IMG/VR virus record: IMGVR_UViG_3300048927_000792
Coordinates: 1 to 54,233 of that record
From: a virus
DNA length: 54,233 nt
Strand: one strand, 5' to 3'
A program made the translations under genes and the position numbers. The notes under the pieces are model-generated. The model made no database searches. It saw only the letters and a program-made list of their open reading frames with translations, and was not told the DNA's origin. This document shows, piece by piece, positions 12,304 through 43,879 of this stretch; within the stretch, counting starts at the first letter, position 1; every line of letters starts with the position of its first letter.

Positions 12304-12944
12304 GACAGCGCTCCTGCGGTCTTCCAGAGGTTCGAGCGCCCGGAGGATTGGGCGATCGGGGTGGTGTTGGAGGTCGAGGTGCCGTTCGCGATGGCGATGG
12401 CGGCCAAGGCGGACTGGTCGCCGGGGTCGAACAGCTCTTGGTCGAGATAGGTCCGGTTGCTGGCCTGGTTGAAGGCTGAGAGATAGCCTTCGATCGAAAG
12501 GCGGATGAGCTGCTCGCTGGCGTCGCCTTCGATGGCCAGAGAGGTCATGTACCCGGTGTAGTAGTGCTGGATCGCGCCGCGCTGGACACCGTTCTCGTCG
12601 CGGATCATCCGCCAGAGGTAGGCGGGACGGCCCTGCCACTTGGCTTGGTCGCCGATCACGTTCAGCGTCTCGTTGTCGATGTCGCGGAGGCCCGAAAGGC
12701 TGCACTCCAGCTGGTCGGAACCGCCGGACTTCGCCTGCACGGAGCCGATGTCGACGAACTTGCCGTTGGTGCCGATGAACGGCTGATCGTTCATCTCGGG
12801 GAATGAGGTGCCCGTGATGGTCACGTCATAGCCGAGCGTGTTGAAGCGCACCGGATTGGTATCGATGTCGAGGAACACGAAGAAGCCGGGGCGGATGACG
12901 TCGTCATCGAGGGCCGCGGCGGCGGCTGCGTCGGGGCGGCTCAT
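12300..12944 (-). CDS. tail hub/baseplate protein (DUF2163-position)
   Basis: 214 residues. ATG at 12944 is supported by GGAGG 6 nt upstream and an ATGA overlap with the HNH gene. Beta-rich (PGFFVFLDIDTNPVRFNTLGYDVTITG) with a QHYYTGYMTSLAI block. Its place matches the GTA gp13-type component between the distal tail protein and the peptidase. Sequence match to that family is not certain. Confidence 0.75.
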   Translation of the reverse strand: MSRPDAAAAAALDDDVIRPGFFVFLDIDTNPVRFNTLGYDVTITGTSFPEMNDQPFIGTNGKFVDIGSVQAKSGGSDQLECSLSGLRDIDNETLNVIGDQAKWQGRPAYLWRMIRDENGVQRGAIQHYYTGYMTSLAIEGDASEQLIRLSIEGYLSAFNQASNRTYLDQELFDPGDQSALAAIAIANGTSTSNTTPIAQSSGRSNLWKTAGALS

Positions 12945-13483
12945 ACGTGCCTCCACGCTTGGTGCTGTCGAATTTTGGAGATTGTGGTCCCAGTGACCCC
13001 ATAATCGCGAGCCACATCAATACCTGCGCGAGTGTCAGCCCGAATGGCGAGGACGTCAGCCTCAGTAAGTTTCGATCCGCCGTTCGCGCTGCCGCGCAAA
13101 ACCTTCTCTGGCTTGACGCGCGCACCGTGTGTGTCACCTCGTGCACGGCGATGCGGTTGGAGATTTGTCCAATGTCTATCGCGGCCTACAGCGCGCCCGC
13201 GAGAAACCATGTCTGCGGCGTTCTCTTTAACCGTCCCCCAGCGGAGATGATGTGGATTAACGCATATCGGGTTGTCGCAAGAGTGCAGGGCCAGCAAACC
13301 AATCGGGCGCGGGCGGCCATCCAACGTCAACGAAATGTGGGTTGCTTGCAGCCGGCGACCGCCGATGCACGCAATGCCATAGCCCGTGTTTTGCTTTGGT
13401 CCGGTCCAAGGCCAACAATCTCGCTCGCTCCCGCCAGGGCAACGCGCAACGAAATAATCTCGGAGTTCATGAATAGGCGGCAT
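12941..13483 (-). CDS. HNH homing endonuclease
   Basis: 180 residues. The core has the HNH_3 pattern ALHSCDNPICVNPHHLRWG and KENAADM (His, Asn, His metal-binding set). A helix-turn-helix follows at the C-terminus (DYGVTGTTISKIRQHQAW), resembling that of the second endonuclease at 36800. The ATG abuts the TAG of the upstream tail gene with GGAGG inside that gene, and the stop overlaps the next ATG, so the insertion leaves the tail operon intact. Probably a selfish free-standing endonuclease. Confidence 0.88.
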   Translation of the reverse strand: MPPIHELRDYFVARCPGGSERDCWPWTGPKQNTGYGIACIGGRRLQATHISLTLDGRPRPIGLLALHSCDNPICVNPHHLRWGTVKENAADMVSRGRAVGRDRHWTNLQPHRRARGDTHGARVKPEKVLRGSANGGSKLTEADVLAIRADTRAGIDVARDYGVTGTTISKIRQHQAWRHV

Positions 13484-14534: not shown

Positions 14535-14571
14535 AAAATGCGGTCACTTGGCGGTGAAGATTACCGCCGTC
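14535..14571 (-). promoter_or_regulatory. late promoter copy 3
   Basis: Minus strand: GACGGCGGTAAT (14571-14560), 19 bp, CATTTT (14540-14535). Transcript start is expected at the ATG at 14528. It overlaps the last bases of the tape measure gene. Confidence 0.75.
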
Positions 14572-17083
14572 ACATGCGGGGGCGAGACATCGCCTTGAGG
14601 TCGCGGGCTGCCAGCGCCCGGCCGCCCTGAGCGCCTTGGATCGCAGCATCTTGCGCCATCTGGTTCATCTGTGCGAGCAGGTATTCCGTCACTACGGCAC
14701 CGCGGAGATCGAAGTGAAGGGCTTGGGCAACTGTGCCGGTCGATCCTGCTACGGCGGCGCGCACTCCGGTCATCGATGCGGCCGCCGTGGCGTTCAGCTG
14801 GTGGTTCGGGACGATCGTGCCGCTGGTCGGTGCGCGGAACAGTTCGGGTCCGTTCTCGCCGACGAGATAGGTTTGGCCGCCGGACACAGGGCCGCCAGCG
14901 GCGCGGGCGCCCGCGATCCCGAACAGCTTGCCGATACCGCCCAGTAGGCCGCCACCCGAACCAATGCCGCCGCTGCCGAAAATCGCTTGCTGGGCTGCGA
15001 GTCGCACGAAGTCGCTGATGATCGAGTTCAGGACATCGCCCGCGACACCCCCGAGTTTGATGAACTCGGTCGATGCCCTGGCGAGGCCATCGGTAAGTTC
15101 GTCTACCGCATTGAGTTCGATCCCTTCGATCGCGTCAGAGAGGTTATCGGCGGTATCACGGGCCTGTCGGCGGCGCTGTTCGAGCGGGGATTCGTACTGG
15201 CGGCCGATTCGCTCAGCGTCGTATCCCTTGAGCTGGTCGAGGATACGGAGGCGCTGTTCGGCGATTTCCTTTTGGGCGTCGGACGCGGTATTGCTGTTCT
15301 GGACGGCCTCCAGCTCCGCACGCTCCTGCTCATAGCTAAGGTCAAGCAGGCGGAACTCGATGTCCCTGCGCTCCTGCCGCGTAGCCACCAAGTCGGCTTG
15401 CGCGCGGAGAAGATCGCTATTGTCCTGGATGGAGGCGTTGTATCTCTCCAGATTGTCACGCCGATTGCTTTCGTCAGCAATCCGCTGTGCGCGTTCGCGC
15501 TGGAGTTCGGCGATCTCCTTTACCGCGGCAGTTCGTTCAGCAAGCTCCTGCTCGCTGATGCGGCCCAACTTGCGCTGGGTTTCGTACTCCGCAAGCCTTT
15601 GACGTTCGTCGCTGTCGATCGCCTGGAGGTTGTAGGCTAGAACGTCTTCCGTAGCCGTCGCCAAGGCAGCCTTTGCGGCATTTACATCGTCCTGCAATCT
15701 CGCCGCGTCACGCGCCTTCGAGGCGTCGTCGCGTATGGCTCGCAGACGCTCTTGCTCCGCCCTTCTGGCCTCAGCTTCAGCTTTACGCTGGGCGGCCGCA
15801 GCCTTTTTCTGATCGGCGTCCGACGGACCTGCCGGCTTAGGAACGTTTCGCTGCAACGGATTGCCGAACCGATCGAAGTACGTGTTAGCCAGATCCGCCG
15901 TTGAGCGCTCAGCCATTTCGTTACGCAGCCTGGCGGCCGAGGCGTCGCGGGTTTTTCTATACCGCCCAAGCAGGTTCGGATTGTATCCGCTCAGACCAAC
16001 CGCGCCGTCGATGTTATAAAGAAGCCCTTCAGCACCGATACTCGCGCCGGTCTGATCCTTGAGGAAGTCAGACACGCCAGAAGCGCTTTCGCGGATAAAC
16101 GAAAACGTCGTTTTCGCTGCTTGGAACAGCGGATCGAAAACGTCGCCAAGGCCTTCGAGGCTTGACCGTATTGAAACACCAAGATCCAAGGCGTCTTGTT
16201 CAAGCGACGCGAACCCTTTGCCTCCATCGGTCACAAAGTTGGCAATGGCGGTTGAGAATTGTCCGCCTCGATCAAAGGCCCCAAAAGTAGTGATCGCAGC
16301 ATTGTTGATCGATGTCATCGCCTGCTCGAAAGTGGTGGGCAGGCCATCAAATTCGGCATTGAGCTGCTTCAGAATCTTCGGGTCATTGAGGGCGTCGAAA
16401 AGCATCTGGCCAGAGAGTTTTCCGTCCTCCGCCATCTTCTTGAGCTCTTGGCGGGTGATCCCCAAAGAGTCGGTGAAGACGCGAGCCAGGCGCGGCGAAG
16501 CCTCCAGAATTTGACCAAGCTCCTCCCACTGCACATTGGTAGAGGCGAGCGCTTGCCCAAGCTGGAGTGTCGCGGATGCTACCTGAGCTTGACCGGCACC
16601 GCCAATTTTTAGAGCCTTTGAGAACGACTCCGTAGCCTGTGCGGCCTCATCCTGACCTCGCCCCAGCTCCTGCGCGGTTCGAGCAAAACTGCCGTAGAGT
16701 GAGGATGTTTCTTCAAGGCCAGAGCGAGTTTCGGCCGCCACTCTCTGGACATCAGCTTGAGCCTGGGCGAATGACCCGAACCCGTTTGTGGCCAAGCGAA
16801 GCTGAGCTTCCATGGACTTCGAGGCGTCGGCGAGATCAAGGAACTGCTTGGCAACCGCAATGAGTGAAACGCCTGCTGCCAAGCTCGAAACTGCGGTACC
16901 TATCCGGTTGACCGATCCGGTAATCGCGCCGGATGAGGTCCGCATCTGGTTTTCTAGGCTGAGGATTGATCGCTCTTGCAGGTTCAAGCTGGCCTGAACC
17001 CGCCTTGCTGTCTGCTGCATGTCAGCGTTATATTTCAGCACGTCAGCACGAAGCTGAAGAATTACCGGGTCGATCTCTGCCAT
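14570..17083 (-). CDS. tail tape measure protein
   Basis: 837 residues. Residues 75-240 match the tape-measure N-terminal domain (SMEAQLRLATNGFGSF, ASPRLARVFTDSLGITRQELKKMAEDGKLSGQMLFDAL). Residues 420-650 are charged coiled coil; the C-terminus is hydrophobic and Gly-rich (GGIGSGGGLLGGIGKLFGIAG) with a GGQTYLVGENGPELF block. Sets tail length and enters the cell envelope during ejection. No Shine-Dalgarno precedes the ATG; late promoter copy 4 puts the transcript start on it. Confidence 0.92.
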   Translation of the reverse strand: MAEIDPVILQLRADVLKYNADMQQTARRVQASLNLQERSILSLENQMRTSSGAITGSVNRIGTAVSSLAAGVSLIAVAKQFLDLADASKSMEAQLRLATNGFGSFAQAQADVQRVAAETRSGLEETSSLYGSFARTAQELGRGQDEAAQATESFSKALKIGGAGQAQVASATLQLGQALASTNVQWEELGQILEASPRLARVFTDSLGITRQELKKMAEDGKLSGQMLFDALNDPKILKQLNAEFDGLPTTFEQAMTSINNAAITTFGAFDRGGQFSTAIANFVTDGGKGFASLEQDALDLGVSIRSSLEGLGDVFDPLFQAAKTTFSFIRESASGVSDFLKDQTGASIGAEGLLYNIDGAVGLSGYNPNLLGRYRKTRDASAARLRNEMAERSTADLANTYFDRFGNPLQRNVPKPAGPSDADQKKAAAAQRKAEAEARRAEQERLRAIRDDASKARDAARLQDDVNAAKAALATATEDVLAYNLQAIDSDERQRLAEYETQRKLGRISEQELAERTAAVKEIAELQRERAQRIADESNRRDNLERYNASIQDNSDLLRAQADLVATRQERRDIEFRLLDLSYEQERAELEAVQNSNTASDAQKEIAEQRLRILDQLKGYDAERIGRQYESPLEQRRRQARDTADNLSDAIEGIELNAVDELTDGLARASTEFIKLGGVAGDVLNSIISDFVRLAAQQAIFGSGGIGSGGGLLGGIGKLFGIAGARAAGGPVSGGQTYLVGENGPELFRAPTSGTIVPNHQLNATAAASMTGVRAAVAGSTGTVAQALHFDLRGAVVTEYLLAQMNQMAQDAAIQGAQGGRALAARDLKAMSRPRM

Positions 17084-17089
17084 GGGGGC

Positions 17090-17126
17090 AGGCTAAGGTG
17101 CCAAGATATGGCGAATTACCGCCATT
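17090..17126 (-). promoter_or_regulatory. late promoter copy 4 (tape measure)
   Basis: Minus strand: AATGGCGGTAAT (17126-17115), 19 bp, TAGCCT (17095-17090). The -10 ends 7 nt before the ATG at 17083; leaderless transcript predicted. Confidence 0.8.
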
Positions 17127-17137
17127 AGGGAGGCGAT

Positions 17138-17596
17138 GTGAAGAGGTGTCCGAAGTGCGCAGAGAAAATCCAGGTGAAAGCCTCTGTCTGCCGGTACTGT
17201 GGTGCGGAACAGCCAAAGCTGGGTAAAACCAGCAACTGGCCAATTCTCGGTGTTTCAGTGGCCGTTTTAGGCGTTTTCTATCTGGCCAGTACCATTGGTG
17301 GGAAACCTAATCCCCGCCCGGTGGTAGCGGAATCACCGAAGCCAGTGATACCCGGTGAAAAATGCAAAGGATACAAAGGAGAGTCCTTCAATTTCTCCGG
17401 AATGGTGAAGCGCTCTCTTCGAAACCCCGCCAGTTTCGAGCATGTCCTCACCGCATATGGCCCAGTGGAAAACGGCGTGATGCTGGCGACTATGCAGTAC
17501 CGGGCGACCAACGGGTTCGGAGCGGTCGATACATATGTGGCAACTGGAGAGGTTAGGGTTTCAGACTGCTTTTCGCGGGTAATATCGGCAGAGTGA
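17138..17596 (+). CDS. zinc-ribbon membrane protein, cargo gene
   Basis: 152 residues from a GTG at 17138 just after GGGAGG; the nearby ATG is followed at once by a stop. The N-terminus is a zinc ribbon (CPKCAEK, then CRYCG), then one transmembrane helix (about 33-52) and a periplasmic domain of about 100 residues with two Cys. Lower GC than its neighbours and divergent from the tape measure. The layout suits a lysogeny-expressed envelope protein such as a superinfection-exclusion factor, but this is inference. Confidence 0.75.
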   Translation: MKRCPKCAEKIQVKASVCRYCGAEQPKLGKTSNWPILGVSVAVLGVFYLASTIGGKPNPRPVVAESPKPVIPGEKCKGYKGESFNFSGMVKRSLRNPASFEHVLTAYGPVENGVMLATMQYRATNGFGAVDTYVATGEVRVSDCFSRVISAE

Positions 17597-17607
17597 ATAT
17601 GTCGGAT

Positions 17608-17886
17608 CTAGGGCAGCGCCCCTCGATCCGACGACACCGCCAATAGCTCTGCGATAGCAGCCTCTGCCATATCCTGAAAAAGGCGTGGCACTGCGTCTAC
17701 TGCATACGTATCGCCGAGAGCATCCGCGATCGTAATCTCAAGGTGGGTCGCGAGCGTCATCGTATCTGCTGGATTAGGTCTGATCTCAGCGATGACGGGA
17801 TGCAAAACGCTCAAAGCTGCGCGGATGATGCGCCGCTGCTCGTTCCACGTAATCTGGGCCTTAGGCGGCGTAGGCTCGGTGAACAT
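17608..17886 (-). CDS. hypothetical helical protein
   Basis: 92 residues, mostly helical (RIIRAALSVLHPVIAEI, TLATHLEITIADAL, LFQDMAEAAIAELLA). Downstream of the antirepressor genes on the same strand. No recognised family. Confidence 0.6.
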   Translation of the reverse strand: MFTEPTPPKAQITWNEQRRIIRAALSVLHPVIAEIRPNPADTMTLATHLEITIADALGDTYAVDAVPRLFQDMAEAAIAELLAVSSDRGALP

Positions 17887-17905
17887 AAGCTATCTCCATA
17901 TTGAT

Positions 17906-17923
17906 GGCGGCCCTAGAGCCGCC
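17906..17923. other. short intergenic hairpin
   Basis: ggcggc (17906-17911), 6-nt loop, gccgcc (17918-17923), between the genes at 17608 and 17933. No T-run; could be an mRNA processing or attenuation structure. Confidence 0.35.
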
Positions 17924-17932
17924 CGCAAAGCG

Positions 17933-18361
17933 TCATGCCGAAAGACGTGCCTCATCTCGCGCGACGCCCTGACGGAATGGTTCGTAGAAATCACCCTCCG
18001 CATGCAGCCAGACGTGTCCGATGCCGCGCTTCTTCATCTTGATCTGCTGCCTGGTCATGGCTGGGGTCTCCGCGAGGCGAACGGCGGCAGTAAGCTGGCG
18101 GGCGAACGCGGCATCCCTCTCGCCCGAAAGCGCGGCCGAATTGCCGAGACGGTGAGCTGCTGCCCAGCGCGCTTCGACCAGATCGCGTTCTGCGCTGGCG
18201 ATCATAGCTTCATTGAAGGCCAGCAGGAACGTCATCTTCGGATCTACTATGCCGTCGATGACTTTCAGGACCGGCGCGCCCGCGTAAGGCGGTGGCGGGG
18301 TTGGATCGGTGCGATTGTCATTGGCAAGGGCGCGCGGAAAGGGTATGACGTTCGAAGCCAT
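17933..18361 (-). CDS. hypothetical protein
   Basis: 142 residues. The N-terminus (NVIPFPRALANDN) is a low-complexity signature common in alphaproteobacterial proteins; residues 40-110 are helical, and the end (RGIGHVWLHAEGDFYEPFRQGV) is aromatic. GGAG before the ATG. A strong hairpin lies just upstream, so expression may depend on read-through from the antirepressor unit. Confidence 0.65.
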   Translation of the reverse strand: MASNVIPFPRALANDNRTDPTPPPPYAGAPVLKVIDGIVDPKMTFLLAFNEAMIASAERDLVEARWAAAHRLGNSAALSGERDAAFARQLTAAVRLAETPAMTRQQIKMKKRGIGHVWLHAEGDFYEPFRQGVARDEARLSA

Positions 18362-18386
18362 GATTGATCTCCATCGATTTGGTTAT

Positions 18387-18419
18387 GAGCGGCGCGGGAT
18401 CACTACTCCCGCGCCGCTC
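18387..18419. terminator. strong hairpin terminator of the antirepressor unit
   Basis: Perfect 13-bp stem gagcggcgcggga/tcccgcgccgctc with a 7-nt loop. It follows the stop at 18425 on the minus strand. The T-rich side (tcttcgttt) is on the plus strand, so it may block plus-strand transcripts better; attenuation on the minus strand is possible. Confidence 0.65.
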
Positions 18420-18424
18420 TTCGT

Positions 18425-18592
18425 TTAGTTGTTGGCTGCCTTCACGCGATCGGCCTCGTCGAGGTATTCTCGCATCCAGTGCCCGGCCTGCTCGCCGAAC
18501 AGATCGGCGTAGAGTTCGATCTTCGCTTCCCTGAGTTCGTGAGGCGACATTTCGTGATCCTCGTCGTCGAGGAGTTCGAGATACTTGCCCAT
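18425..18592 (-). CDS. small acidic phage protein
   Basis: 55 residues, MGKYLELLDDEDHEMSPHEL then HWMREYLDEADRVKAANN; acidic and helical. ATG at 18592 overlaps the previous stop (TGATG). Last gene of the antirepressor operon before the hairpin. Function unknown. Confidence 0.7.
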   Translation of the reverse strand: MGKYLELLDDEDHEMSPHELREAKIELYADLFGEQAGHWMREYLDEADRVKAANN

Positions 18593-18873
18593 CAGTCGAT
18601 CGGCCTGATCGAGATTTCAGGGCCGTTGAACAGAAGCTCTTCCAGTTTCATGATGACCAAGCTGATTGCGGCCTTGGAAACCACTGCAACGCCGTCATCC
18701 CATCCCGTGCCCTGATCTTCAAGGCTAATGCACTGCATCGCGGTGTGGAGCCATTCGTTCGGTGTTCCCATATTTTCGGGAAGATCGAACAGGGCGGGGC
18801 TGATGGTGCGCATCAGGTGAAGGCGAGAGCCGGCGCGTTCGTCCGGTGTCGGCAAATTCACGATATTGCTCAT
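18592..18873 (-). CDS. hypothetical protein in the antirepressor operon
   Basis: 93 residues, one globular domain (SRLHLMRTISPALFDLPENMG, VVSKAAISLVIMKLEELLF). Start overlaps the antirepressor stop. No family recognised; translational coupling suggests a role tied to the antirepressor. Confidence 0.65.
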   Translation of the reverse strand: MSNIVNLPTPDERAGSRLHLMRTISPALFDLPENMGTPNEWLHTAMQCISLEDQGTGWDDGVAVVSKAAISLVIMKLEELLFNGPEISIRPID

Positions 18874-19430
18874 GCAGCCTCCTGCCGGATCATGCCGTAA
18901 TGGAAGAGGTCATTCTGTTCCGGACGGTACATCTCCGGGACGCGCGGCAGGTTCATCTTGAAGTAGGCTTGCCGGAAGGCCATCGTACCGAAGCCTTTAT
19001 GGATCATGTCGCAGAGGCGCATCTTTTCGGAGATCGACATTTCCTCGTGCGGCTCGCCATCAGGGTCAACAATGGCGCGCTTGCCAGCGAAGTGGTCGTG
19101 GAGAACCTGATAGCACTCGCGCTGATACAGAATCACCCGCTCTTTGACCGCTTCGTCTTTGATGCGATGCGTGTCGATGCCGAAGAGCCATCCATTGACC
19201 AGCTCAAGCTTGATGCAGAGAGCATCCTGTGCCCCACCTCGACCGAAAGGGATATGCATGACACATATACCTTCGCTGAGAACGGGGTCGCGCTTCACGC
19301 GCTGCTCTTGTCCGGACCAATTCAGCCCCATACCTTCTACGAGCGGCTTGAGGGCCACAAAGGTTCCGTCGTCGCGCTTGAACCCGCAAAGGTCATCTCC
19401 GCGGAAGTTGACAGTCACAATCTCACCCAT
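18870..19430 (-). CDS. ant: phage antirepressor (P22 Ant N-terminal domain)
   Basis: 186 residues. Residues 5-115 match the P22-type antirepressor N-terminal domain (VTVNFRGDDLCGF, FVALKPLVEGMGLNWSGQEQRVKRD, DALCIKLELVNGWLFGID, CYQVLHDHF). Such proteins bind and inactivate phage repressors to trigger lytic growth. The C-terminal 70 residues differ from P22 Ant. Preceded 63 bp upstream by an Arc-type gene, matching the P22 immI order arc-ant. Confidence 0.85.
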   Translation of the reverse strand: MGEIVTVNFRGDDLCGFKRDDGTFVALKPLVEGMGLNWSGQEQRVKRDPVLSEGICVMHIPFGRGGAQDALCIKLELVNGWLFGIDTHRIKDEAVKERVILYQRECYQVLHDHFAGKRAIVDPDGEPHEEMSISEKMRLCDMIHKGFGTMAFRQAYFKMNLPRVPEMYRPEQNDLFHYGMIRQEAA

Positions 19431-19493
19431 GATATGGGCCTTTCATGCTTGGCGCTATGCGCCGGGTTTTTGGAGTGGCCTCGAACCTGGTTC

Positions 19494-19667
19494 CTACGCC
19501 GAGTGGTTCGAGGCCGCTTTATGTGCGCTGATGGCGCTCTTGAGATGAAAGATCATCTCACCGCTCAGCGTCCTGCAATTGGCAGATGCCAATTCTTCCA
19601 ATTCGGCCCGCATGCCCTCAGGCACGCGGAAGATCATCTTGTCCTCTTTGCGTGGAGTAGTGGTCAT
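19494..19667 (-). CDS. Arc-type ribbon-helix-helix repressor
   Basis: 57 residues from the ATG at 19667, GGAGG 8 nt upstream. KMIFRVPEGMRAELEELASANCRTLSGEMIFHLKSAI is a complete RHH: basic strand, helix A, turn, helix B. Should dimerise and bind its own operator region at 19690-19739, repressing the antirepressor operon as Arc does. Confidence 0.85.
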   Translation of the reverse strand: MTTTPRKEDKMIFRVPEGMRAELEELASANCRTLSGEMIFHLKSAISAHKAASNHSA

Positions 19668-19689
19668 ACATACCGCCTCCTTTCTGCGG

Positions 19690-19739
19690 TATGGCGAGAC
19701 AATTGCATCGCCATATGGCGATGTCAATGGGTCGCCATA
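19690..19739. promoter_or_regulatory. 50-bp symmetric operator between divergent RHH genes
   Basis: Four half-sites: TATGGCGA (19690-19697), TCGCCATA (19708-19715), TATGGCGA (19714-19721), TCGCCATA (19732-19739), symmetric about 19714.5. The centre is an 18-bp perfect palindrome catcgccatatggcgatg (19706-19723). A minus-strand -35 TTGACA (19727-19722) lies inside, with AATTGT as possible -10. Bound RHH tetramers would cover both divergent promoters. Confidence 0.8.
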
Positions 19740-19781
19740 TGAGGTAGTGAATTTTTTTGAGAAGGCGGCTAACGAGTATCT

Positions 19782-20225
19782 ATGAAGAATCGTGCACCAA
19801 GCGACAAAGCCGACAAAATCATCATTCGCCTGCCTGATGGGATGCGCGAGCGCCTGCAGCTACGCGCTGCGGCGGGCGGGCGATCGATGACGGCCGAGGT
19901 TGTTGATATGCTGGAGCGCGGCTTAGGTGAAATGCCAGTCAGCGATCTCAAGTCGCTGTACGAAGACGGCATGGCCATCGAAGCGCAGATTCGTGCGGTA
20001 GAGGTCGATCTGGAGCAGAAGAGGGCACGCCTGGAGGCGATCCATGAGCAAATCCGCCAGCATATCGGGCGGGATATGGGCGATCACGATCCCCTTCAAT
20101 ATGCATGGGTCTACATGCAGAGCGAGATCGAAAGCGATGATGCCGCCGCCCGCCAGAAGCGCATTTTCGACGCTATCGGTAAGGTCGTGGACAGCGATCG
20201 GGCGAAGGGCAAGCTGCCTGAATGA
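19782..20225 (+). CDS. RHH repressor with coiled-coil C-terminus (Mnt-like)
   Basis: 147 residues. Residues 10-48 are an RHH domain (ADKIIIRLPDGMRERLQLRAAAGG, SMTAEVVDMLERGL), then a long coiled coil (IEAQIRAVEVDLEQKRARLEAIHEQIRQHIG) and an extra helical domain. Mnt also joins an RHH to a coiled coil, so this and the divergent Arc-type gene make an arc/mnt-like pair across the 50-bp operator. Confidence 0.8.
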   Translation: MKNRAPSDKADKIIIRLPDGMRERLQLRAAAGGRSMTAEVVDMLERGLGEMPVSDLKSLYEDGMAIEAQIRAVEVDLEQKRARLEAIHEQIRQHIGRDMGDHDPLQYAWVYMQSEIESDDAAARQKRIFDAIGKVVDSDRAKGKLPE

Positions 20226-20259
20226 CCAAAGCCGAGAAGCCCTAGAGCCGCCCTCGACT

Positions 20260-20300
20260 CCCTGATGATGCCTGATCCATAGTTGGGCGTCGAATCAGGG
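20260..20300. other. inverted repeat after the RHH gene
   Basis: ccctgat (20260-20266) and atcaggg (20294-20300) with a 27-nt loop, just before the retropepsin-like gene. Weak; may be a terminator or a regulatory fold. Confidence 0.3.
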
Positions 20301-20306
20301 GGTTGT

Positions 20307-20759
20307 ATGGCGATCTTGAAAGTCCGGTACATCGATGATTTAGGGCGCCCGTCGGACCCTGTTAATGGCTATCCGTGCGTTGATCTGAGGATGAGTTTTC
20401 GGTCTCCGCATGACCCTGCTGGCAACCCCATCTCGCTGGAGGATGTGTTTCCAATCGTCGCCGTAATCGACACCGGCGCTCATATAAGTGGGATTGTGCC
20501 GCGCTGCATTCCGCATTGGGCTAGGGCAGAGATTGTCACAAAGTCGACAGGCGTCACTGGCGTTGGAACATCGAATATTTATCGGGCGACAGTCTATGTT
20601 GAGGATGCGAAGTGGATGGCGGCAGGGGTTCTTTTCGGGTCAATCTCGATGGAAAACACGCCGTTCGATGTCGTTCTGGGTCGAGAATTTCTCCGACACA
20701 CGAGCTTCGATTATGATGGAGCTTCCGGCATTACCTGGCTGAAGGTGCCAACCGCGTAG
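20307..20759 (+). CDS. retropepsin-like aspartic protease domain protein
   Basis: 150 residues from the ATG at 20307 after a GGGGG run. FPIVAVIDTGAHISGI places Asp-Thr-Gly at 55-57 after a hydrophobic strand, as in clan AA aspartic peptidases; PFDVVLGREFLRH (119-131) matches their late conserved block (h-LG-x-D/E-FL). A single domain of this size would act as a dimer. AT-richer than its neighbours and on the opposite strand to the structural genes; likely acquired cargo. Substrate unknown; inactive binding domain possible. Confidence 0.75.
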   Translation: MAILKVRYIDDLGRPSDPVNGYPCVDLRMSFRSPHDPAGNPISLEDVFPIVAVIDTGAHISGIVPRCIPHWARAEIVTKSTGVTGVGTSNIYRATVYVEDAKWMAAGVLFGSISMENTPFDVVLGREFLRHTSFDYDGASGITWLKVPTA

Positions 20760-20826: not shown

Positions 20827-20979
20827 TCACTGGCCACGATGCGCCTCCACAAACCTCCGAAGCCGGTCAGGATCACCGGGGGCTTTCGGTTCTGACCCTG
20901 GCGAGGCATGTGCCTCGTTATGGGCCTCCAACGCTTCGAAGTAGCCCGAGAGCGAAAGCCGCTCCCAGTCCAGATGCAT
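20827..20979 (-). CDS. second tail assembly chaperone ORF, probable frameshift product
   Basis: 50 residues from the ATG at 20979, MHLDWERLSLSGYFEALEAHNEAH. No ribosome site precedes the ATG (GGCGGG abuts it). The frame stays open upstream (RKGQLISNCGG) and overlaps the end of the chaperone at 20997 in the -1 frame, near CGAAAAG. Like lambda G/GT, expression by -1 frameshift to a longer fusion is more likely than independent initiation. Confidence 0.65.
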   Translation of the reverse strand: MHLDWERLSLSGYFEALEAHNEAHASPGSEPKAPGDPDRLRRFVEAHRGQ

Positions 20980-20996: not shown

Positions 20997-21446
20997 TCAG
21001 TTGTCCTTTTCGGAGAGGCTGGGGGCCAGCGGCTCCTCCCCCGCGCCGGGCGCTTTTTTTAGGCTGATGCCGACAATCGCCGCATGCAGGATCGACCAGG
21101 CGACGTGGAGCCCCTCGACCATGGGGCGGCTCGGGAACACATAGCCCTCGACCAGTTCGCGAGCCTTCTGCGGGCCGACCTCGATCTCGGCGCCGTCCAC
21201 CATGCCGGAATTGCCGCCGATCAGGCCGAGGCGGATCGTCTCGCGGATTTCAGCGACCATCGCCGAGCCGCCGCCGAGGTAGACTGGCGCAGTGCCATCG
21301 ATGGCCAGCCCGGCACCCATGGCGTCGTACATCGCGAAGATGGACTTATCCCCGCACTTGCGCTCCAGCTCGACCACCTGAGGGAGGCCGAGCCAGAAAC
21401 TATAGTCGCCATCCCCAAAGGCTAGCGTGACGGCAGTGTCAGGCAT
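20997..21446 (-). CDS. tail assembly chaperone (GTA gp10-like)
   Basis: 149 residues: beta-rich start TLAFGDGDYSFWLGLPQVVELERKCG and ARELVEGYVFPSRPMVEGLHVAWSILHAAIVG fit the GTA gp10-type tail chaperone family. Follows the tail tube gene, as in siphophages, but is separated from the tape measure by the 3.7-kb island. Confidence 0.8.
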   Translation of the reverse strand: MPDTAVTLAFGDGDYSFWLGLPQVVELERKCGDKSIFAMYDAMGAGLAIDGTAPVYLGGGSAMVAEIRETIRLGLIGGNSGMVDGAEIEVGPQKARELVEGYVFPSRPMVEGLHVAWSILHAAIVGISLKKAPGAGEEPLAPSLSEKDN

Positions 21447-21895: not shown

Positions 21896-21922
21896 GGGCA
21901 ATCTCCAGCATGGTCTGTGCCG

Positions 21923-21959
21923 AAGTTATGGGTTCGGGCGCTAGCCGTTTACCGCCGTT
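21923..21959 (-). promoter_or_regulatory. late promoter copy 5 (tail tube unit)
   Basis: Minus strand: AACGGCGGTAAA (21959-21948), 19 bp, TAACTT (21928-21923). Start near 21916 gives a leader of about 20 nt, which contains GGAG. Confidence 0.78.
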
Positions 21960-21964
21960 GGGCA

Positions 21965-21997
21965 AACGAAAAGGGCGGCCATCGCTGACCGCCCCTT
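21965..21997 (-). terminator. intrinsic terminator after the 22018 gene
   Basis: Minus strand: AAGGGGCGG, 10-nt loop, CCGCCCTT with one bulged G, then TTCGTTT. Ends the short unit from late promoter copy 6 just before copy 5. Confidence 0.65.
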
Positions 21998-22017
21998 CTA
22001 CTTCGGAGGCCTTAGCC

Positions 22018-22206
22018 TCAGGCCATACCGGCGCGGCGGGTCTCGAAGATCGAGCGCGGATGATCGGCGACGAAGCGGAATTCATCGGCGCCGGCGAAAG
22101 TCGGGATGAGATCAAGCGTGCGCGAAATTGCGGCCGCGATGGCATTGGATGCGAAAACGACTGCGGCCGTGGCGGCAAGCGCGATGAAGCTGAAGATGCG
22201 TCCCAT
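22018..22206 (-). CDS. small secreted or membrane protein
   Basis: 62 residues with a signal-like hydrophobic start (RIFSFIALAATAAVVFASNAIA) and a soluble C-terminus. AGGAG 8 nt before the ATG. Has its own promoter (copy 6) and terminator, so it is a single-gene late unit inside the head-tail region. Function unknown. Confidence 0.7.
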   Translation of the reverse strand: MGRIFSFIALAATAAVVFASNAIAAAISRTLDLIPTFAGADEFRFVADHPRSIFETRRAGMA

Positions 22207-22247
22207 GGGTTTCTCCTGAGCCTTGGGTATTCAGTCAAGGAACCTGG

Positions 22248-22284
22248 AGATTGGAGGCGACCTTCAGTCGGGGTTACCGCCGTT
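22248..22284 (-). promoter_or_regulatory. late promoter copy 6
   Basis: Minus strand: AACGGCGGTAAC (22284-22273), 19 bp, CAATCT (22253-22248). The 12-mer lies in the last codons of the 22264 gene. Leader about 35 nt with AGGAG before the ATG at 22206. Confidence 0.65.
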
Positions 22285-43225: not shown

Positions 43226-43449
43226 GCTGCGGCCTTCCGCTTCTCGCTCTGGTCGCGAGGAGCGCCAAACACGAGATCGTGCGCAGTCACCTTGCCCTTT
43301 GTCGCTTTGACGATCGCCTTGATGGCGGAGTGAGAGGCGTTCTGTTCCCCAAAGAGAATGCGCCCGATGGAGACTGCGCTAAGACCGGTCTTCCGTGCGA
43401 GTTCGGCGGGCGTAATCGCGCCGCTTTTCAGATAGGCATCCAGCGTCAT
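43222..43449 (-). CDS. cro: Cro-like helix-turn-helix repressor
   Basis: 75 residues from the ATG at 43449. TPAELARKTGLSAVSIGRILFGEQNASHSAIKAIVKATKG is an XRE-type HTH. First gene of the leftward early operon, divergent from cI across three operator sites. A -35/-10 pair (TTGACC 43485-43480, TAAGTC 43461-43456) puts the start of transcription at about the ATG, so the mRNA may be leaderless. Confidence 0.8.
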   Translation of the reverse strand: MTLDAYLKSGAITPAELARKTGLSAVSIGRILFGEQNASHSAIKAIVKATKGKVTAHDLVFGAPRDQSEKRKAAA

Positions 43450-43456
43450 GCACAAG

Positions 43457-43532
43457 ACTTACACCCCATGTAAGTTTGAGGTCAAGTCCGATTTACGCCC
43501 GATGGCATTATCAACTTACGCCAGATGCCGGA
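43457..43532. promoter_or_regulatory. OR-like operator cluster, three sites
   Basis: O1 ACTTACACCCCATGTAAGT (43457-43475), O2 ATTTACGCCCGATGGCATT (43491-43509), O3 ACTTACGCCAGATGCCGGA (43514-43532). O1 is a near-perfect palindrome overlapping the leftward -10; O3 fills the spacer between TTATCA (43508-43513) and GATAAT (43531-43536) of the rightward cI promoter. Confidence 0.8.
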
Positions 43533-43543
43533 TAATGCCCGGC

Positions 43544-43879
43544 ATGACCGATAAGCGCATATACCTCAAAGAGTGGCGCAAGATGGCCGGGTTGACCCAG
43601 GCCGAGGTCGTCGCGCGCCTAGAGATCCATGATGACGAACGGCTTCCGAAAACCGGGGCCAGCTTGTCGCGTCTGGAGAACGGGACCCAGCCCTATAGCG
43701 AGCGGGTGCTCCATGCCCTTGCCGACATCTACGGGTGCGAGCCTTGGGAATTGATTGGCCGCAACCCGAAGAAGGAGGGTCACGTCATAGACTTGGTCCG
43801 CAAGCTGGACGAGCGAGAGCAAGAGCGTGTGCGGGCCTACATCGAGGGCATGCGCGCCAACGGCGGGAGCGCGGCGTGA
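43544..43879 (+). CDS. CI-like prophage repressor, short form
   Basis: 111 residues from the ATG at 43544. XRE-type HTH (LKEWRKMAGLTQAEVVARLEIHD, LSRLENGTQPYSERVLHALADIYGCEPWEL) then a short helical tail. There is no S24 autocleavage domain, so RecA-triggered self-cleavage is not expected. GATAAT ends 7 nt before the ATG and no Shine-Dalgarno is present: leaderless mRNA predicted, as for lambda cI. Confidence 0.85.
   Translation: MTDKRIYLKEWRKMAGLTQAEVVARLEIHDDERLPKTGASLSRLENGTQPYSERVLHALADIYGCEPWELIGRNPKKEGHVIDLVRKLDEREQERVRAYIEGMRANGGSAA

What the first reader, a model, noticed from the sequence alone, without database searches (positions are those of the whole stretch)
17138..20759. P22-like second immunity unit inserted between tail chaperone and tape measure
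Tail chaperone and tape measure are normally adjacent. Here 3.7 kb intervene, containing Arc-type RHH, Mnt-like RHH, antirepressor, three coupled genes, a zinc-ribbon membrane protein and the retropepsin-like gene. P22 immI sits near tail genes too, but not at this position. The block looks like a self-contained regulatory cassette with its own operator and terminator.
Basis: partly seen in the sequence, partly recalled or inferred. Interest (0 to 1): 0.72.

Follow-up and report, generated by a model that had tools for sequence, protein, structure and literature searches.

The report
Swappable antirepressor cassette in phage tail operon
Between two tail genes of this bacterial virus sits a self-contained genetic switch, two small repressors with their own DNA sites controlling an antirepressor, of the kind known from Salmonella phage P22; relatives carry it, lack it or hold a different version in the same spot, so it is a plug-in module of a known type in a less familiar place.

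Summary
About 3.7 kb separates the tail assembly chaperone genes from the tape measure gene, and it contains a divergent pair of Arc/Mnt-type ribbon-helix-helix genes, a P22_AR_N antirepressor and a tandem operator over the antirepressor promoter. The interpretation needs trimming. Only 17.93-20.23 kb (o142, o55, o93, Ant, Arc, Mnt) is the immunity cassette. It is bracketed by a 15-bp direct repeat (17910-17924, 20239-20253) that in relatives ends whichever accessory gene fills the slot. The zinc-ribbon gene, the retropepsin-like gene and o92 are separate: relatives have the first two without the cassette. Near relatives show the slot without it (L159, L162) or with another version (L157, L161: Rha/KilAC antirepressor, other RHH pair, other operator). 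The same arrangement at this position already exists in Erwinia phage Midgardsormr38 and in L039, and a 91% identical Ant follows the putative chaperone genes of a contractile-tail phage (L016). It is therefore a P22 immI-type "ant moron" in the chaperone/tape-measure slot. New details: exact edges, swappable antirepressors, and DNA-contact residues matched within each RHH pair (permutation P about 1e-4), suggesting one shared operator instead of P22's separate Arc and Mnt sites. Lysogeny effects are untested.

The parts
20997..21446 (-). tail assembly chaperone (GTA gp10-like), left neighbour of the slot
   Evidence: Phage_TAC_11 1.2e-8; PHROG tail 3e-15; 91-99% identical in relatives
20827..20979 (-). 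second small chaperone ORF (TAC2, 50 aa); slot begins at its stop codon
   Evidence: conserved 49-100% in relatives; no family hit
20307..20759 (+). retropepsin-like gene (D-T-G and G-R motifs), a separate moron
   Evidence: RVP 9e-4, TIGR03698 0.0012; kept without the cassette in L159
20239..20253 (.). right boundary repeat GCCCTAGAGCCGCCC
   Evidence: only direct repeat of at least 14 bp within 17-21 kb; homology to L159 begins exactly here
19782..20225 (+). Mnt-like ribbon-helix-helix regulator, 147 aa
   Evidence: Pfam Arc 2.6e-8; PDB 1mnt 0.0034
19690..19739 (.). tandem operator: two TATGGCGA-N10-TCGCCATA palindromes
19699..19727 (-). candidate Pant: TTGACA-N17-AATTGT, inner half-sites lie in the spacer
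   Evidence: same geometry as annotated P22 Pant; the -10 matches only 3 of 6
19494..19667 (-). Arc-like ribbon-helix-helix regulator, 57 aa
   Evidence: Pfam Arc 2e-6
19477..19515 (.). hairpin over the arc stop codon, at the place of P22 t-sar
   Evidence: 11 bp stem, 3 compensatory pairs in 4 cassettes; P22 t-sar position
18870..19430 (-). antirepressor Ant (P22_AR_N plus a short C-terminal part), 186 aa
18592..18873 (-). o93, 93 aa, overlaps ant by 4 bp; absent from L016 and L157
18425..18592 (-). o55, 55 aa, conserved partner gene
   Evidence: 81% in L016, 96% in L157
18387..18419 (.). terminator-like hairpin (13 bp perfect stem) after o55
   Evidence: equivalent hairpins read in L157, L016, L161
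17933..18361 (-). o142, 142 aa; N-terminal part shared with L157
17910..17924 (.). left boundary repeat GCCCTAGAGCCGCCC, inside a full palindrome
17608..17886 (-). o92, unassigned ORF outside the repeats
   Evidence: no family hit, no relative
17138..17596 (+). zinc-ribbon, one-TM protein; separate moron beside the tape measure
   Evidence: present without the cassette in L002, L003, L155, L156
14570..17083 (-). tape measure protein, right neighbour of the slot
   Evidence: TIGR02675 4e-16

Best explanation
The cassette at 17.91-20.25 kb is a P22 immI-type antirepressor switch carried as a moron in a late-operon slot between tail chaperone and tape measure. In the prophage the Mnt-like protein, made from its own promoter on the opposite strand, and the Arc-like protein occupy four half-sites that straddle the antirepressor promoter and keep ant silent (inferred from sequence and from P22). 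When ant is expressed, on infection or induction, its product is expected to inactivate the phage's own repressor or that of another prophage and push toward lysis; arc, the first gene of the same transcript, then shuts the promoter down. arc-ant lies in the same direction as the late genes, so late transcription must pass through it to reach the tape measure; the conserved hairpin at the arc stop may limit Ant output there, as sar RNA does in P22 (weak inference). The unit moves as a block between repeats and swaps antirepressor type. Shown here: gene families, operator, edges, presence/absence and alleles. Inferred: all regulation and any effect on lysogeny.
For: Gene families. Operator and promoter geometry like P22: Pant TTGACA-N17 with the operator between -35 and -10 in the window, L016 (N18) and P22, and usable -35/-10 pairs in most other cassettes examined. 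Matched DNA-contact residues in the paired RHH proteins: position 9 in 8 of 11 cassettes, positions 9 and 11 in 5 of 11, permutation P 1.5e-4 and 2e-5, with only a small excess in the helices (0.36 against 0.31 identity). Presence and absence in near relatives with an exact break at 20239. Alternative alleles with Phage_pRha plus ANT/KilAC antirepressors. 15-bp bracketing repeat. Independent carriers in the same slot: Midgardsormr38, L039, L157/L167. Candidate primary repressor elsewhere in the window, HTH_31 at 43448-43879. In P22, deleting immI reduces lysogeny (PMC11016777).
Against: No expression or binding data. The -10 of Pant is weak and the promoter scan found none. Ant is only 186 aa and lacks the long C-terminal part of P22 Ant (300 aa). 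In P22 Arc and Mnt bind separate operators, so a shared site is a departure. No antisense sar transcript is shown. The target repressor is only guessed.
Confidence: 0.78

Rival explanations
1. The whole 17138-20759 block, including the zinc-ribbon and retropepsin genes, moved in as one element.
For: All of it has lower GC than its surroundings and lies in one interval.
Against: The retropepsin gene stays in L159 without the cassette and the zinc-ribbon gene stays in L002, L003, L155, L156 without it; L157 has the retropepsin gene with a different antirepressor and no zinc-ribbon gene.
Confidence: 0.05
2. The RHH/Ant genes act mainly on other prophages or superinfecting phages (anti-immunity or exclusion) and not on this phage's own lysis-lysogeny choice.
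For: Trans-acting antirepressors that hit non-cognate repressors are known in Salmonella prophages (PMC3121763); related cassettes occur in phages with unrelated tails (L016, L157), so they are unlikely to be tuned to one cognate repressor.
Against: P22 Ant does act on its own C2 repressor, and immI deletion changes P22's own lysogeny.
Confidence: 0.3
3. A toxin-antitoxin or defence unit: RHH antitoxin-like proteins controlling small unknown genes (o93, o55, o142).
For: RHH proteins are common antitoxins; FitA-like hit for the Mnt-like protein; the small genes have no known family.
Against: No PADLOC hit for the small genes; the constant element is an antirepressor (P22_AR_N or Rha/KilAC), not a toxin family; o93 and o142 are missing or variable between alleles.
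Confidence: 0.07

Closest known systems
Salmonella phage P22 immI region (mnt, arc, sar, ant)
   Same: divergent RHH genes, arc first in the ant transcript, P22_AR_N antirepressor, operator inside the Pant -35/-10 spacer, hairpin at the arc stop, moron inside the late operon in late-gene direction
   Different: slot is chaperone/tape measure, not gene 16/gene 9; Ant lacks the long C-terminal part; Mnt-like protein longer (147 aa); one tandem operator with matched RHH contact residues instead of separate Arc and Mnt operators; three extra small genes; sar not shown
Erwinia phage Midgardsormr38 ORF16-ORF21
   Same: Arc-family (-) | Arc-family (+), antirepressor, second antirepressor and two small genes between the ORF after the major tail protein and the tape measure
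   Different: Ant 28% identical, second antirepressor, different tail proteins; its paper does not use the words antirepressor or immI in the main text
HK97 gp15 moron
   Same: moron between tail chaperones and tape measure
   Different: single small exclusion gene, no regulatory cassette; the zinc-ribbon protein shows no sequence similarity to it
Phage ES18 genes 18-20
   Same: three possible morons in the same slot
   Different: one is a DUF4041 protein, no RHH/antirepressor unit

Membership tests
P22 immI-type unit ('ant moron') | two divergent Arc/Mnt-type RHH genes | tested here: met
P22 immI-type unit ('ant moron') | antirepressor with P22_AR_N downstream of arc | tested here: met
   E 1.9e-27, phrog_524 1e-38
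P22 immI-type unit ('ant moron') | P22 Ant C-terminal part | tested here: not met
   only P22_AR_N found, protein 186 aa; alleles vary widely in this part, so I treat it as a variant feature, not one that decides membership
P22 immI-type unit ('ant moron') | operator overlapping Pant between the divergent genes | tested here: met
   binding itself not tested
P22 immI-type unit ('ant moron') | separate Arc and Mnt operators | tested here: inconclusive
   a single repeated site type and matched contact residues point to one shared operator
P22 immI-type unit ('ant moron') | sar antisense RNA in the arc-ant gap | tested here: inconclusive
   conserved hairpin at the t-sar position; no Rfam hit; transcript not testable here
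P22 immI-type unit ('ant moron') | inserted in the late operon, variable between relatives | tested here: met
P22 immI-type unit ('ant moron') | Ant inactivates the prophage repressor | not testable with these tools
   needs genetics
HK97 gp15-type exclusion moron (for the zinc-ribbon gene) | sequence relation to gp15 | tested here: not met
   no alignment
Retropepsin-like aspartic protease (clan AA) | D-T-G motif and family profile match | tested here: inconclusive
   motif present, profiles 9e-4 and 1.2e-3 below cut-offs; structure prediction failed, pLDDT 33

The most novel reading that the evidence does not exclude
The chaperone/tape-measure gap is a dedicated plug-in slot. Next to the tape measure it nearly always holds a divergently transcribed membrane or exported protein (zinc-ribbon TM protein, two-TM protein or putative lipoprotein) that could be a tape-measure-linked superinfection exclusion gene like HK97 gp15. 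Next to that, a swappable antirepressor switch sets immunity, and its two RHH proteins read one shared operator code.
Probability: 0.28. Interest if true: 0.62.

Novelty: new variant of a known kind. Interest (0 to 1): 0.42.

Why it matters
It shows that P22-type secondary immunity units travel as replaceable cassettes with short repeat edges into a late-operon slot in unrelated tail backgrounds. It also gives a natural set of RHH-pair/operator alleles in which DNA recognition by ribbon-helix-helix proteins and antirepressor swapping can be tested directly.

Tried and rejected
Near-identity DNA search of phage records: no match. Rfam and tRNA scans: nothing. PADLOC on the unknown slot genes: nothing. 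Structure prediction of the retropepsin-like protein alone: pLDDT 33, unusable, so no fold search. Zinc-ribbon protein against HK97 gp15: no similarity. Search with Ant of the bacterial family of the Sphingopyxis hit: 2 of 397 genomes, the known Sphingopyxis hit and a 38% one, so no host assigned. Boundary hairpin as a slot-exclusive element: rejected, since of 16 IMG/VR contigs holding the palindrome 5 are this slot and 11 show no match to the slot proteins. One-to-one pairing of tape measure type with adjacent gene: rejected, L157 has the L155/L156 tape measure type but a different neighbour gene. Half-site TATGGCGA at 17107 as a second operator: not supported, no paired half-site within 3 mismatches.

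Full report
What is there. The window is a virus record of 54,233 bases. On the minus strand run the tail tube, tail chaperone (20997-21446), a 50-aa second chaperone ORF (20827-20979) and, after a gap, the tape measure (14570-17083). The gap holds, left to right, a zinc-ribbon one-TM gene (+), o92 (-), o142 (-), o55 (-), o93 (-), Ant (-), Arc-like (-), Mnt-like (+) and a retropepsin-like gene (+). Family searches support the named genes; o92, o142, o55 and o93 match no family. ant and o93 overlap by 4 bp and o93 and o55 by 1 bp; in L016 ant and o55 overlap directly, so o93 is an extra gene here.

Operator and promoter. The 114-bp divergent gap contains two TATGGCGA-N10-TCGCCATA palindromes with a 24-bp repeat distance. 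On the ant strand the first holds TTGACA in its spacer and the second the -10 position, so the inner half-sites sit between -35 and -10. L016 has the same plan with a different half-site: TATGCC-N14-GGCATA twice, 26 bp apart, around TTGACA-N18-GATATA. In P22 the Arc operator likewise lies between TTGACA and TATATT of Pant. The general promoter scan did not report the window site because its -10 is poor.

Paired specificity. I aligned the beta-strand contact residues (Arc positions 9, 11, 13) of 11 divergent RHH pairs found in the window and its relatives. Position 9 matches within the pair in 8 of 11 (2.4 expected from shuffled pairing, P 1.5e-4), and positions 9 and 11 together in 5 of 11 (0.46 expected, P 2e-5). 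The helices are only slightly more alike within pairs than between them (0.36 against 0.31, P 0.005), so recent duplication explains little of it. The alignment was made by hand-anchoring on the R-x-P motif and the sample is small. P22's own pair, from my knowledge of the proteins, does not match at position 9, which agrees with its separate operators.

Edges. Contig 3300048928_000624 (L158/L159) has a chaperone 98.7% identical, but between chaperone and tape measure only the retropepsin gene and a 145-aa gene; its homology to the window stops at 20239. At 20239-20253 lies GCCCTAGAGCCGCCC, repeated at 17910-17924, the only direct repeat of 14 bp or more in 17-21 kb. The two copies bracket exactly o142-o55-o93-Ant-Arc-Mnt. 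In L002, L003, L157, L159, L161 and L162 the same hairpin, or half of it, follows the last gene of an accessory unit in the slot. It is not exclusive to this slot: a scan of IMG/VR found 16 contigs with the palindrome, 5 of them this slot. I read it as a terminator-like boundary at which cassettes recombine; that is inference.

Alleles. L161 (chaperone 91%) carries another RHH pair with a Phage_pRha + ANT/KilAC antirepressor. L157, with a distant chaperone (29%) and tape measure (51%), carries the retropepsin gene at 100%, o55 at 96%, a third RHH pair and another Rha-type antirepressor. L162, L160, L163, L155 and L156 have no immunity cassette. So the cassette is neither ancestral nor fixed, and the antirepressor can be exchanged while its neighbours stay.

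Recurrence of the position. Erwinia phage Midgardsormr38 has Arc(-) | Arc(+)-Ant-Ant2-two genes-tape measure. L039 has chaperone, small ORF, a putative exported protein, Mnt | Arc-Ant, tape measure. L016, with a tail sheath, has the cassette (Ant 91% identical) right after its putative chaperone ORFs, but no tape measure is within the fetched stretch. Among 92 antirepressor clusters with enough downstream sequence, 16 have a detected tape measure within 6 kb on the same strand; this is a lower bound, since L039 was missed. The term 'ant moron' for such a variable late-operon insertion was used for P22-like phages (PMC2629481).

Hairpin at the arc stop. Window, L157, L016 and L161 share an 11-bp stem over the arc stop codon; 97.7% of cells pair and 3 pairs change on both sides, against 0-1 in slid controls, with only 4 sequences. 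P22 has t-sar at this place. A TTGACA-N17-GATATG sequence reads toward it from the start of ant in the window and L016, but it overlaps conserved coding sequence, so I give it little weight.

Mechanism. By analogy with P22 (immI deletion lowers lysogeny, PMC11016777): the RHH proteins silence ant in the lysogen; Ant, when made, disables a repressor. The target may be the phage's own repressor (candidate HTH_31 gene at 43448-43879) or others, as with Salmonella antirepressors (PMC3121763). None of this was measured here.

Separate morons. The zinc-ribbon gene lies directly beside the tape measure in the window and four contigs; other relatives have a two-TM protein or a putative lipoprotein there, on the opposite strand to the tape measure. 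The lipoprotein call is from reading its N-terminus; my simple lipobox and TM scan did not flag it. HK97 gp15 and ES18 genes 18-20 occupy the same gap. ES18 gp19 is annotated DUF4041, the domain of the SNIPE defence protein that contacts tape measure proteins. This makes an exclusion role for the tape-measure neighbour plausible but unproven.

Noticed in passing
window 17138-17596; L002, L003, L155, L156, L157, L159, L160, L162, L163: Every relative examined with a readable slot has a divergently transcribed membrane or putative exported protein gene directly beside the tape measure start; its type changes with, but is not strictly tied to, the tape measure N-terminus.
   Followed up: partly
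window 20307-20759: Single-domain retropepsin-like protein (D-T-G motif) next to the tail chaperone, found otherwise in only two IMG/VR contigs, 99-100% identical; function unknown.
   Followed up: partly
window 12941-13483: HNH endonuclease gene that looks like a clean insertion: in L159 the flanks at window 12943 and 13491 are contiguous.
   Followed up: partly
window 21918-22284: About 0.37 kb after the tail tube gene is absent from L158, L160, L161 and L162, whose flanks are nearly contiguous.
   Followed up: no
L152 (phage ES18) 2145-3674: A DUF4041 (SNIPE-domain) gene sits between the gene after the major tail protein and the tape measure in ES18, the same slot.
   Followed up: no
window 17107-17114: A lone operator half-site TATGGCGA lies between the tape measure and the zinc-ribbon gene; no partner half-site.
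   Followed up: yes
L016 6001-8774: Two P22_AR_N antirepressors in tandem in one phage, the second of a different subtype.
   Followed up: no
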